64,000 nt of DNA from the NCBI RefSeq assembly GCF_004342485.1, contig NZ_SMBU01000024.1, positions 1 to 64,000 on the forward strand, in the 5' to 3' direction. Source of the stretch: Roseateles saccharophilus (GTDB lineage: Bacteria > Pseudomonadota > Gammaproteobacteria > Burkholderiales > Burkholderiaceae_C). Shown here one piece after another: positions 54,456-58,455 of this stretch. The notes beneath the pieces were generated by a model. That model saw only the letters and a list, made by a program, of their open reading frames with translations. It ran no database searches and had not been told where the DNA came from. The translations under genes were made by a program, and so were the position numbers. Within the stretch, counting starts at the first letter, position 1. Each line of letters begins with the position of its first letter.

Positions 54456-55808
54456 TCAGCGCAGTCGCCGGTCCAGCCAGTTCAGCACCCGCAGGTCCTG
54501 GAAGTAGTTGGTGTGATGCGTCTCGGCGCTCACGCCGAGGTCCTCCCACTGCGGCGCGGCCAGCGTGAGGCTGCCCAGTCGGTTCATGGCCGCGCTGTCG
54601 ACGACCAGGTCGTTGGGCTGGTCGAAGATCAGGTCGGCGCCGTAGTACATGGCCTGGCCCTTGAGGTGGGTCACGCGTTTCCACAGCTTCCACAGCGGCT
54701 CGTTGACTTCGCTGGGCTGGAAGCTGCCGCCGATGGCACGCACGTCGGTGCTGCCCGGCAGCGGGTAGAGCTGGGCCAGTTCGAGGTTGTTGTCCACCCG
54801 CCCCATCGCCAGCAGTCCCGGCACCAGGCCCACGGCGGCGTCGGTCAGTGGCGTGCGGGCCCCCAGCTGCAGCAGCTTGCCCAGCACGCAGGCCAGGCCG
54901 CCCACCCCCAGGGCGAGTGTGTCCAGGCCCGGCGGGGCGACCTTGCGCGCCTTGGAGGCGGCCTCGGCCACGGCGTCGGCAAAGCTGGCCAGCGTGTCCA
55001 GGGCCTGGCGCAGCTTGTCCGGCGCGGCCAGCGAGGTGCCGGCCAGAGGCGCACCGACGAACAGGGCCTGGCGGGCGCGCAGGCCCGGCGACATGCGCAG
55101 CAGCCAGGAGATGACCAGGCCGCCACGGCTGTGGCCGACGAAGTCGAACTCGGCCGGACAGGGTTGCAGCGCGTCGCGCAGGGCCAGCGCGTTCAGCCAG
55201 GGCGCGACGGACAGCGTCGGATGGTCGAAGGCCAGCACGGCCGCATAGCTGCCGCGCGCATCGGCCAGGCGCTGCAGCAGGGCCTCGCCCTCGGCCGTCG
55301 CGGTGAACTCCTTGGCATACATCGCACTGGCGCTGAAGGTGCCGTGCACCAGCACCAGCACACGGCCCTTCAGCCCGGCCAGGAAGCCGGCCGGCAGGGG
55401 CAGCCAGGCCCGGCCGTCCCAGCGGCGCAGGCCGTCGGCCGGCGCGGCCAGCTCGGCCAGCACGGGGTTCAGCTGGCGGTCCAGCCTGACGAGGCCGGCC
55501 GTCACGGCGTTCTCGCCCAATTCGGGGAAGGCGATGCGCTGCACCGTCTCACGCGACTCGGGCGCGAAGCTACGCCAGCTGCGCCGGCCCTGGCTGCCGA
55601 GCTGGCGCAGCGGCGGCTCGTAGACCCAGCGCAGCAGGCCATCGTCACGCACCAGGCGCACGGCGGCGCGGCCATCGGCGGCCTGCGGGTCGAAGCCGCG
55701 GCGGCGGCGCTGCTGGATGGGCGCACGCATCGCGTCGCCGGCGGGCGCAGACACGTCGAGCTGCTCGCCCACCTGGGCCCACAGGGCCTGGCTCGCGATG
55801 CTGTTCAT
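54456..55808 (-). CDS. Lipase-like alpha/beta hydrolase paired with a CHAT-like protein
   Basis: A 450-residue alpha/beta hydrolase without signal peptide. After an N-terminal region of about 145 residues, the strand VLVLVHGTFSASAMYAKE gives the oxyanion loop. The nucleophile elbow is FVGHSRGG with S227. A likely acid is in DLVVDSAAM and the terminal histidine in ETHHTNYF. ATG 55808 is preferred over 55889, since the extra residues overlap a hairpin-rich gap. It lies downstream of a pseudo-CHAT/transglutaminase gene on the same strand. Lipase genes beside CHAT or caspase genes are known from bacterial conflict systems, so a joint role is possible. Confidence 0.78.
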   Translation of the reverse strand: MNSIASQALWAQVGEQLDVSAPAGDAMRAPIQQRRRRGFDPQAADGRAAVRLVRDDGLLRWVYEPPLRQLGSQGRRSWRSFAPESRETVQRIAFPELGENAVTAGLVRLDRQLNPVLAELAAPADGLRRWDGRAWLPLPAGFLAGLKGRVLVLVHGTFSASAMYAKEFTATAEGEALLQRLADARGSYAAVLAFDHPTLSVAPWLNALALRDALQPCPAEFDFVGHSRGGLVISWLLRMSPGLRARQALFVGAPLAGTSLAAPDKLRQALDTLASFADAVAEAASKARKVAPPGLDTLALGVGGLACVLGKLLQLGARTPLTDAAVGLVPGLLAMGRVDNNLELAQLYPLPGSTDVRAIGGSFQPSEVNEPLWKLWKRVTHLKGQAMYYGADLIFDQPNDLVVDSAAMNRLGSLTLAAPQWEDLGVSAETHHTNYFQDLRVLNWLDRRLR

Positions 55809-55870
55809 TGGTGCACCCTTCGACCTGCGGCCTTGCCTGGCCGACAGTGCGGCCAGGCGTTCGCCAGGCA

Positions 55871-55927
55871 TGGAATGCCCACAGGGCATCCCATGTCCGG
55901 GCTCACTCCCGCCAAGCGGGAGCGAGC
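55871..55927. terminator. Two hairpins between the CHAT-like and lipase-like genes
   Basis: ATGCCC-aca-GGGCAT (55875-55889, extendable to 55871-55893 with one mismatch) and GCTCACTCCCGC-caa-GCGGGAGCGAGC, one mismatch in 12 (about 55901-55927), lie in the 145-base gap. They could reduce transcription from the upstream gene into the downstream one. Confidence 0.5.
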
Positions 55928-55953
55928 TTGCTTGGGGCGGCCCGGCGCGGCGC

Positions 55954-58455
55954 TCATGGTGCGTCCCTCAGCAGCGGCAGCGGCGTGATCTGGCGCTGCC
56001 GCGCGGTGATGATGTCCAGCATGGAGTCGTAGTCGGCGCGGTCGTTCAGCGCGTCGACGCCGGCCTCGATGGCCTCGACGAAGCCGCAGTGCTCGGTCAG
56101 GCGCACGGTCTCGATGGGCACGAGCTTGCGTTCGGCGATCAGCTGCCTCACCTCGTCCCAGCTGGCGCGGCCGGCATGCCAGGGCACGGTCTGGGCATTG
56201 GCGGCCGAGCTGCCGCCGGCGTCGGCCTGCACGGCGCCGCTGTAGCTGCCCGTCATCTGCATATAGGCGTCGCGGAAGGACGGGTGCCGCCACCAGCCCG
56301 GCAGCGCATGGCCCTCGAGCAGGAAGACGACGGGGTAGATGTCCACCAGCTCCAGGCAGGCCGCGAACAGCAGGGCCAGATCGATGCAGGTGCCGGCACG
56401 GTCGGCCAGCACGGTGGAGGGCATGCGCAGGCGCTGCGAGTCCAGCTGGCGGCTGTAGCTGGGCGGCGGATTCACATAGCCCAGCTGCCAGTCGTGCAGC
56501 AGCGTGGCCCAGATGGCCTCGACCTGGCGGTCCACGCCGCGCAGCAGCTCCTCGTCGATGCGGCCGTCCGCCACCACCGCGCCATCGGGCACGCACTGGT
56601 AGCCCTCGAAACCGGCCGTGGGGTCGTCGCGCAGCACGCGGTTGTAGCGCTGCGACTGCGACACCGCGCGCACCACGGCCGGGTCGCGCGGCAGCACGAA
56701 GGAGGGCAGCCACTGGCCGTCGCGGCGGTTGTCGCGCCACTGGTCCACCGGCAGCAGGCGCAGGCGGTGGCTGTCGTGGTAGAGCAGCCTGCCGCCCTGG
56801 CTCACGCGCACCTGCAGGCTGGTGTTGATGGCCTCGTGCACGCCGCGGGCCACGTCGGCCGTCAGCGGCACATGGATGTCCTTGGTGAGGTTCTCGCGCT
56901 CGTGCTGCATGACGACGCGCCGCTCGAAGCGCGCCTCCTCGTCGCCCATGTGCACGGCCACCTCGACATCCAGCGGCTCGGCCTCGGCCGGCGCATCGCA
57001 GCTCAGCACGAAGCGCTTGAACAGGGGCTGGGCGTTGTGCAGCACCGCATAGTTCAGCTCGGGGAAGGGCTCGATGGCGCAGCGCACCTCGGGCGAGGCC
57101 GGTGCCGGCGCCGCCACCTCGGCGGCAGCCGCAGCGAGCGCCCTGCCCTCGGCCGCGTGCGCGGCGCGCGTGGCCGGGTCGACGAAGACCGGGCCGTCCA
57201 GCCACAGCGTCACGCCGGTCGCGTCCACCGATTCGGGCAGGGCGCGCACCTCCTCCCAGGCGCGGCCGAAGGCGGCCGGCAGGTCGAAGCCGCTCGCGAA
57301 CAGATGGCGCAGCAGCTGCACCAGCGCGTATTCCGCGAGCGAATCGTCGAAGGCATCCTGGAAGCCCAGGGCCGCCCGCGTCGCGCCTTCGGCGATCAGC
57401 ATGGGCGCCAGGCGCGCGGCGCTGTTCCATACGTTCAGCGTCGTCAGATAGGGCGGCGCGGTGCCCACGGCATCGGCCACGGCGCGGGCCAGCGCCTGGG
57501 CATGCACGAGGCGGGGGTAGCCGGCCGAGCCGCGCAGCAGCAGGCCGTCCGGCAGTCGGCGCGAGTCGGCCAGCAGCTCGTCGATGAGCTGCTGGCGGCC
57601 GGGTGCGCCGGCCTCATCCGACTCGGGCGCTTCGACCAGGGCCGCCTTGCCCAGCAGCGCGCCCAGCTCGCGCAGGCCCTGGTGGCTGTCCATGCCGGCA
57701 AAGTGCAGCAGATGCGGCGGGCGGGCCTTCAGCTCGGCCACCAGCTCGTCCAGGCTCGGGTAGTTCAGCACGCGCGGCGACGGCACCTCGGGCGGCAGGG
57801 CCGCGGCCAGGTTCTTCAGCTCGGCCTCCACCGTCCAGCGCTCGCCCAGCTCGGTCGGCAGGGTGCTGACGAAGAGCACGCGCAGCGCCTGCCACGCCGG
57901 CATGACGACGGCCTCGCGCGGCACCGGCCACCACTCGCCCTCGACCTCGTGCTGCAACTGCAGCTCGCGGATGACGGTCAGCGGCGTGGGGCGCTCGGTG
58001 GCGCCGCGGCGCTGCTCGCGCGTGGCCGCGGCCAGCACGTATTCCCACGGGAAGATGCGGCCCTCCCAGCACAGCGCTTCGTGGCGGTAGGGCACGCGCA
58101 CGACCAGCGCCGGCGCCTGCCCCAGCGCCCGCAGCCCGTCGTCCCCCAGGCCCAGCGTCCTCAGCGTGTCGCGGGCGTCGAGCTGGTGCTGCTCGCGCAC
58201 CTTGGCATCACGCACCCAGCGCTGGCGCGAACGCAGCACATAGGTCCAGCGCAGCGCCTGCTGGGCCATGCTCTGGCGCGAGCGCAGGTCCACGCTGGCC
58301 AGCGGCAGGCCCAGCGCGTTGCCGGCGCTGGCGATGTGCACGCCTTCGAGCAGGCGCTCATGCTCGGGCAGCAGTCCGGTCTTGCCCACGGGACGGTCCT
58401 CATGTCGTCGAGACGGACCGCAGTATCGCGACGCCGCGCCCGCGCGCAACGCCAT
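55954..58455 (-). CDS. Degenerate CHAT-domain protein with transglutaminase-like domain
   Basis: An 833-residue cytoplasmic protein. The N-terminal half has the CHAT (caspase-like) fold: PHLLHFAGMDSHQG (H251, M255) and LNVWNSAARLAPMLIAEGA around W343. At the two places where active CHAT proteases carry GH and a cysteine (HFAGHG, LNACESA), this one has M255 and W343. A beta-rich middle follows. A transglutaminase-like domain then has C690 in AGTCIDLALLFAACLE, H716 in LEGHALPGWW and VPIETVRLT, as in DUF4011-type proteins. Starts at ATG 58455 or GTG 58389, which has AGGA upstream. Function unknown. Confidence 0.72.
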   Translation of the reverse strand: MALRAGAASRYCGPSRRHEDRPVGKTGLLPEHERLLEGVHIASAGNALGLPLASVDLRSRQSMAQQALRWTYVLRSRQRWVRDAKVREQHQLDARDTLRTLGLGDDGLRALGQAPALVVRVPYRHEALCWEGRIFPWEYVLAAATREQRRGATERPTPLTVIRELQLQHEVEGEWWPVPREAVVMPAWQALRVLFVSTLPTELGERWTVEAELKNLAAALPPEVPSPRVLNYPSLDELVAELKARPPHLLHFAGMDSHQGLRELGALLGKAALVEAPESDEAGAPGRQQLIDELLADSRRLPDGLLLRGSAGYPRLVHAQALARAVADAVGTAPPYLTTLNVWNSAARLAPMLIAEGATRAALGFQDAFDDSLAEYALVQLLRHLFASGFDLPAAFGRAWEEVRALPESVDATGVTLWLDGPVFVDPATRAAHAAEGRALAAAAAEVAAPAPASPEVRCAIEPFPELNYAVLHNAQPLFKRFVLSCDAPAEAEPLDVEVAVHMGDEEARFERRVVMQHERENLTKDIHVPLTADVARGVHEAINTSLQVRVSQGGRLLYHDSHRLRLLPVDQWRDNRRDGQWLPSFVLPRDPAVVRAVSQSQRYNRVLRDDPTAGFEGYQCVPDGAVVADGRIDEELLRGVDRQVEAIWATLLHDWQLGYVNPPPSYSRQLDSQRLRMPSTVLADRAGTCIDLALLFAACLELVDIYPVVFLLEGHALPGWWRHPSFRDAYMQMTGSYSGAVQADAGGSSAANAQTVPWHAGRASWDEVRQLIAERKLVPIETVRLTEHCGFVEAIEAGVDALNDRADYDSMLDIITARQRQITPLPLLRDAP

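What the first reader, a model, noticed from the sequence alone, without database searches (positions are those of the whole stretch)
54456..58455. Candidate two-gene conflict-type system: pseudo-CHAT/transglutaminase protein plus lipase-like hydrolase
The larger protein has a CHAT fold whose catalytic positions read M255 and W343 instead of His and Cys, joined to a transglutaminase-like domain that keeps C690 and H716. The smaller is an intracellular GHSRGG hydrolase. CHAT proteases with effector hydrolases, and this kind of transglutaminase-like domain, are known from bacterial defence and conflict loci. A dead CHAT used as a scaffold or sensor with a live transglutaminase-like part and a lipase would be a new combination. 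Function is inference.
Basis: partly seen in the sequence, partly recalled or inferred. Interest (0 to 1): 0.62.

Follow-up and report, generated by a model that had tools for sequence, protein, structure and literature searches.

The report
Dead-CHAT/transglutaminase protein paired with lipase
Two neighbouring bacterial genes, one a protease-like protein whose caspase-type half has lost its active site and the other a lipase-like enzyme, are inherited together as a unit, which fits an uncharacterised defence or self-killing module but has not been shown to be one.

Summary
Protein A (55954-58455, minus, 833 aa) models as a CHAT/caspase fold (best PDB match SAVED-CHAT, Z 19.8). Its catalytic positions lack His and Cys in 21 of 21 full-length relatives. 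Its C-terminal half keeps Cys690, His716 and Glu782 and is colinear with the N-terminus of the DUF4011 helicase that NCBIfam calls anti-phage ProA. Protein B is a DUF7379 alpha/beta-hydrolase with Ser227, Asp400, His432 invariant in 22 of 22; its likely start is 55808.

The pair is real. In 399 family genomes A and B hit the same 14. In 20 of 21 loci B's start codon overlaps A's stop by 4 bases. In 13 of 22 loci the pair follows argC at one site, where A and B diverge together (rho 0.91) while flanks stay 87-96% identical. Elsewhere DUF7379 is fused to CHATs with intact His-Cys motifs or to caspases.

Best reading: a split conflict-type module with a dead CHAT, a candidate live cysteine peptidase and a lipase effector. 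Defence function is inferred. No defence island surrounds it here, and no full-length copy was found on plasmids, phages or viral contigs.

The parts
55954..58455 (-). Gene A, 833 aa: dead CHAT domain plus Ig-like/transglutaminase-like module
57136..58353 (-). CHAT/caspase-fold region, residues about 35-440; position 255 (Met, codon 57691-57693) and 343 (Trp, codon 57427-57429) replace catalytic His and Cys
   Evidence: model and fold search; conservation; profile alignment of the His position
55957..57093 (-). ProA-type module, residues 455-833, with invariant C690 (56386-56388), H716 (56308-56310), E782 (56110-56112)
54456..55808 (-). Gene B, 450 aa from the likely start: DUF7379 alpha/beta-hydrolase; S227 (55128-55130), D400 (54609-54611), H432 (54513-54515)
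55698..55709 (-). Arg-rich motif near the N-terminus of B (R34-R37; R36 and R37 invariant in 22 of 22), candidate cleavage or membrane-binding site (inference)
55815..55965 (-). Dispersed repeat inserted at the A/B junction in this genome; 14 further partial or near-complete matches in the same genome
58465..59421 (-). argC, directly upstream of A and read in the same direction; fixed flank of the insertion site

Best explanation
A two-gene intracellular conflict (immunity or regulated cell-death) module. Shown: A and B are linked, overlap at the gene junction in most relatives and are inherited as a unit; A has a CHAT fold without the catalytic dyad; A also has a Cys-His-Glu module shared with ProA; B has an intact serine-hydrolase triad. 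Inferred: A holds B inactive; the dead CHAT acts as a docking or sensing surface, as pseudo-caspases do; a trigger (phage or other stress) activates the transglutaminase-like cysteine peptidase, which cleaves or releases B; B then attacks membrane lipids or lipoproteins and stops the cell.
For: Co-occurrence 14 and 14 of the same 399 family genomes and adjacency in 21 of 22 loci. Start codon of B at -4 relative to A's end in 20 of 21 loci. Dead dyad in 21 of 21 and in two further relatives at 34-36% identity, where the positions read Val and Tyr. C690, H716, E782 invariant in 21 of 21 A proteins and in 13 of 13 rows when ProA is included. NCBIfam antiphage_ProA is hit by 21 of 21 A proteins, and ProA-type proteins also match PADLOC PDC-S37 and Hhe (2 of 2 scanned). 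DUF7379 is fused to CHAT (3) or caspase C14 (2) in the 5 single-chain proteins scanned. In-place divergence of the cassette against conserved flanks. Purifying selection on all three parts, with the CHAT part evolving faster than the transglutaminase-like part in 6 of 6 pairs.
Against: No PADLOC family matches A or B. The window neighbourhood is housekeeping, not a defence island. No full-length copy on plasmids (0 of 72,556 records at 80% coverage), phages or viral contigs. The ProA score is 157 bits against a cut-off of 1500, because only its N-terminal module is shared. Transglutaminase fold is not confirmed by structure. A-B binding, proteolysis and toxicity are untested.
Confidence: 0.4

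Rival explanations
1. A housekeeping or envelope-stress regulatory pair. A regulates B, a lipid or lipoprotein esterase, in response to a cellular signal and has no role in conflict.
For: Fixed chromosomal site beside argC/parB in 13 of 22 loci, presence in 14 of 20 genomes of the genus, no plasmid or phage copies, no PADLOC match.
Against: Patchy occurrence (14 of 399 family genomes), an empty site of about 100 bp in G604 and no pair at the site in three others, and allele-like divergence of the pair against 87-96% identical flanks are unusual for a housekeeping pair. Relatives of the parts occur in conflict-type proteins.
Confidence: 0.27
2. The transglutaminase-like module is not a protease but a transferase, deamidase or amide-forming enzyme that modifies B or a cell target; the pair is a toxin-regulator pair.
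For: The third invariant polar residue is Glu782, not the usual Asp or Asn (recalled), and the fold was not confirmed.
Against: None direct. Transglutaminase-like peptidases, as well as caspases, are named in conflict systems (passages of PMC7159879 and PMC8195603).
Confidence: 0.15
3. A toxin-antitoxin-like addiction pair kept by its own selfish value: B is the toxin and A its neutraliser, swapped among strains by recombination.
For: Strict pairing and unit exchange.
Against: The 833-aa, three-part A with a conserved active site is far from a simple antitoxin; no mobile-element copies found.
Confidence: 0.1

Closest known systems
DUF7379-CHAT single-chain proteins (L044, L045, L055; annotated CHAT protein WP_051420469.1 of Ruegeria pomeroyi)
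   Same: Same hydrolase family (PF24096) combined with a CHAT domain.
   Different: There the two are one chain and the CHAT His and Cys are present in 4 of 4. Here they are two chains, the CHAT is dead and a ProA-type module is added.
NCBIfam NF058533 anti-phage protein ProA (DUF4011 helicase with MTES_1575 nuclease; PADLOC PDC-S37, Hhe-like)
   Same: Colinear N-terminal module of about 330 residues with the same invariant Cys, His and Glu.
   Different: A lacks DUF4011, helicase and nuclease parts and scores 157 bits against a cut-off of 1500. In ProA the module is N-terminal; in A it is C-terminal behind the CHAT.
SAVED-CHAT and TPR-CHAT (Craspase) proteases
   Same: CHAT fold (Z 19.8 to 8tl0, Z 15.0 to 7y9x).
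   Different: Those have a His-Cys dyad (H585 and C627 in TPR-CHAT, passages of PMC9729208). No CRISPR gene was noted beside A, and no SAVED domain was detected by Pfam.
FLIP(L), the human pseudo-caspase
   Same: Caspase fold without catalysis used to regulate partner activity (abstract of PMC7586951).
   Different: Eukaryotic, unrelated domain set; analogy only.

Membership tests
CHAT peptidases (PF12770) | CHAT/caspase fold | tested here: met
   Model 184-424 to 8tl0 Z 19.8, rmsd 2.8, 190 residues; 44-424 to 7y9x Z 15.0.
CHAT peptidases (PF12770) | Pfam CHAT model match | tested here: not met
   No CHAT hit at E up to 1.
CHAT peptidases (PF12770) | Catalytic His-Cys dyad | tested here: not met
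   Position 255 is M10 F6 V2 L2 C1 and position 343 is W19 E1 D1 in 21 sequences. The His position is backed by profile alignment (probability 43%, E 2.5e-4, 72 columns, which do not reach the Cys). The Cys position rests on the LNV-W-NSAAR motif and the model strand.
DUF7379 (PF24096) | Pfam model above gathering score | tested here: met
   87.2 bits against 33; 22 of 22 relatives match at E 0.001.
Serine alpha/beta-hydrolases | Fold and conserved Ser, acid, His | tested here: met
   Z 16.6 to 6wpx over 219 residues, rmsd 4.2; S227, D400, H432 invariant in 22 of 22. Activity not tested.
Anti-phage ProA (NF058533) | Full-length score above curated cut-off | tested here: not met
   157 bits against 1500; only profile positions 1-240.
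Anti-phage ProA (NF058533) | N-terminal transglutaminase-like module | tested here: met
   21 of 21 A proteins match; shared invariant Cys, His, Glu in 13 of 13 rows.
Transglutaminase-like superfamily | Recognised fold | tested here: inconclusive
   DUF553 E 0.1 for A, 20.3 bits against 20.5 for one ProA N-terminus; model low confidence; no transglutaminase among 6 PDB sequence hits at E up to 5.
Known anti-phage systems in PADLOC 2.0.0 | Model match for either protein | tested here: not met
   0 families at E up to 1.
Anti-phage defence system | Protects cells against phage or plasmid | not testable with these tools
   Needs experiment.
MoxR-vWA (VMAP) ternary conflict systems | Linked MoxR and vWA genes | not tested
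   Neighbours were not searched for these families.

The most novel reading that the evidence does not exclude
A protease-swap immune module. An ancestral CHAT-lipase protein was split, its CHAT lost catalysis and became a fast-evolving trigger sensor, and proteolysis passed to a transglutaminase-like peptidase borrowed from the ProA anti-phage helicase family. On infection this peptidase cuts the conserved Arg-Arg motif at B's N-terminus and frees a membrane-destroying lipase. Alleles are exchanged in place at the argC site, giving strain-specific immunity.
Probability: 0.18. Interest if true: 0.78.

Novelty: new variant of a known kind. Interest (0 to 1): 0.52.

Why it matters
If it works as proposed, it is a bacterial counterpart of pseudo-caspase control of cell death, with a second cysteine enzyme and a lipase as the executioner. 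It would also link the ProA-type module and the DUF7379 hydrolases, two poorly understood parts, in a small two-gene system that can be tested in a laboratory host. The fixed-site, in-place exchange gives natural allele pairs for finding the trigger.

Tried and rejected
Dead ends. PADLOC on A and B: nothing. Sequence search of the PDB with A and B: chance hits only; with the ProA-type module profile: no transglutaminase. The paper that named ProA was not found: searches listed nothing that I recognised as it. Searches for the combination or for DUF7379 listed no paper on this pair; I saw listings only, and only 12 of 65 papers were listed.

Rejected ideas. B starting at 55889: the relatives start at the equivalent of 55808 and the extra stretch is a dispersed repeat. 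A as a ProA member: cut-off not met. A as an active CHAT protease: dyad absent. Mobile-element cargo: no support. Defence-island location: not seen in the window; in other loci a few conflict-type neighbours were noted from a hand-picked set, not a systematic test, so no enrichment is claimed.

Limits. Searches of 399 and 398 genomes scored only the best 2 (A) or at most 4 (B) candidates per genome, so misses are possible. Of 22 loci, two partial A copies (L020, L022) were dropped from the residue counts; L019 was dropped from the flank comparison, which used 12 loci plus the window. The correlation uses non-independent pairs and is descriptive. One search contained the window row out of frame and was replaced. 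Domain limits in the dN/dS test were set by distance from the C-terminus. My simple gene finder miscalls some genes. The fold search gave ranges, not residue pairs, so the equivalence of 255 and 343 to catalytic positions is by motif, model and a weak profile alignment.
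Full report
What is there. Gene A (55954-58455, minus strand, 833 aa) lies 9 bases downstream of the argC stop and is read in the same direction; gene B follows it. The third-position G+C of A and B (0.94 and 0.93) equals that of argC (0.93) and is close to parB and mnmG (0.90, 0.92), so the pair does not look foreign by composition. The window is one contig of a 5.77-Mb genome in which A occurs once. The nearest named relatives are Pelomonas and Roseateles (record titles).

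Gene B's start. The 477-aa ORF starts inside a stretch that is missing in the 3 relatives aligned across the junction. That stretch matches 14 other places in the same genome, one over 142 bases at 92% identity and most only over about 40-60 bases. In 20 of 21 relatives a start codon (19 ATG, 1 GTG) lies 4 bases before the end of A; in L018 the gap is 94 bases.

Domain anatomy of A. Pfam finds nothing above cut-off. An AlphaFold2 model from 21 sequences is good over residues 41-440 and poor beyond about 570. The good part matches SAVED-CHAT 8tl0 best (Foldseek E 9.6e-10; Z 19.8 over 190 residues, rmsd 2.8), then the Cas7-11-Csx29 and Craspase entries, gingipains, separases and caspases. The catalytic His position is M10, F6, V2, L2, C1 and the Cys position W19, E1, D1 in 21 sequences; two more distant relatives read Val and Tyr. 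CHATs fused to DUF7379 elsewhere keep His and Cys in 4 of 4. Profile alignment puts Met255 on their His, though with only 43% probability and without reaching the Cys. Several neighbours of the lost site stay invariant (G254, D256, N344, R348), so the pocket region is kept for something.

The C-terminal half. Residues 468-726 match the first 240 positions of NCBIfam antiphage_ProA (E 4.4e-46), and all 21 A proteins match that family. Alignment shows colinearity to the end of A, with C690, H716 and E782 invariant in 13 of 13 rows including six ProA N-termini. ProA carries behind this module DUF4011, helicase, a MTES_1575 nuclease and DUF3320, and matches PADLOC PDC-S37 and Hhe. A has none of these. 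A transglutaminase-like fold is likely but unproven: DUF553 is weak in A and just below cut-off in one ProA. On plasmids, A matched 74 records, none over 80% of its length; the 15 listed all match only this half, and those with an annotated gene under the match are DUF3320 or DUF4011 proteins.

Protein B. It is DUF7379 (87 bits, cut-off 33; 22 of 22 relatives). The model has a well-predicted hydrolase core (blocks 131-250 at 75-92 pLDDT, mean of the whole 65) and matches lipases and esterases (Z 16.6 to 6wpx, 219 residues, rmsd 4.2). S227, D400 and H432 are invariant in 22 of 22, as are R36 and R37 near the N-terminus.

Pairing. Of 22 GTDB loci with an A relative (44-89% identity), B is adjacent in 21 and the other is cut by the contig end. 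In 399 genomes of the family, A is found full length in 13 and as a fragment in G530; B is found in exactly those 14. G530 has an A fragment on another contig and one stop inside B, so that copy looks decayed. The other 17 A hits cover only the ProA-type columns.

Location and evolution. In 13 of 22 loci argC precedes A. In the genus, 14 of 20 genomes have A. Of the six without, the site could be inspected in four: about 100 bases between argC and the GNAT gene in G604, no A or B in G607 and G601, and a pirin, a weak DUF4231 and a DUF4062 protein in G596. In 13 genomes with the pair at this site (12 loci plus the window), flank identity is 87-96%, A 46-92% and B 46-91%. A and B identities correlate (rho 0.91) and neither follows the flanks (rho -0.28, -0.27). 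L005 and L014 are sisters by flanks (support 0.997, 95% identity) but share only 49% in A and 48% in B. In-place replacement of the whole cassette is the simplest reading; strong local acceleration is not excluded. dN/dS is 0.15-0.47 for the CHAT part, 0.10-0.26 for the ProA-type part and 0.19-0.36 for B in six pairs, with CHAT above the ProA-type part in 6 of 6. The dead CHAT is thus maintained and the faster-evolving part of A.

Wider context. The five single-chain DUF7379 proteins scanned, taken from the strong hits, combine it with CHAT (3) or caspase C14 (2). One of them lies beside TIR and caspase-like genes. The only plasmid hit of B is a CHAT-domain protein of Ruegeria pomeroyi followed by an AAA ATPase gene. 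Published analyses of conflict systems describe many caspase domains in effector position as inactive and suggest regulatory or peptide-binding roles (passages of PMC7159879). Alpha/beta-hydrolases aimed at membrane lipids and transglutaminase-like peptidases are named among effectors (passages of PMC8195603).

Mechanism. Shown by sequence: linkage, unit inheritance, dead CHAT, conserved Cys-His-Glu module, conserved hydrolase triad. Inferred: complex formation, the CHAT as sensor or scaffold, activation of the cysteine enzyme by a trigger, cleavage or release of B, lipid attack and cell arrest. I give this about 0.4. The main rival is a non-conflict regulatory pair, favoured by the fixed chromosomal site and the lack of mobile copies.

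Verdict. Observation confirmed; interpretation partly supported. A new variant of a known kind: a split hydrolase-CHAT module with a dead CHAT and a borrowed ProA-type enzyme domain.

Noticed in passing
window 55815-55965: Dispersed palindrome-rich repeat inserted exactly at the A/B junction; 14 further matches in the genome, one nearly full length.
   Followed up: partly
L112 11517-16264 (G596, argC site): A genome without the pair carries a pirin gene, a weak DUF4231 and a 768-aa DUF4062 protein next to argC.
   Followed up: partly
L016 15238-17463: AAA_13 ATPase matching PADLOC PDC-S06 about 3.6 kb from the pair.
   Followed up: no
L048 2420-7599: In G096 a subtilase gene directly precedes the A relative, perhaps a third component.
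   Followed up: no
L055 1717-10309: DUF7379-LCAT-CHAT-TPR-S protein of 1872 aa between a TIR gene and a caspase-like gene.
   Followed up: no
G391:C35 and G019:C178 (L090, L077): ProA-type module in open frames of only 361 and 321 aa, possibly stand-alone or cut.
   Followed up: no
MT836269.1 10551-11303 (hit H16): An unannotated record labelled Bacteriophage sp. holds a weak match (23%) to the ProA-type half of A.
   Followed up: no
G530 contigs C57 and C372: Apparently decayed copy: B with one in-frame stop, A only as a 97-aa open frame on another contig.
   Followed up: no
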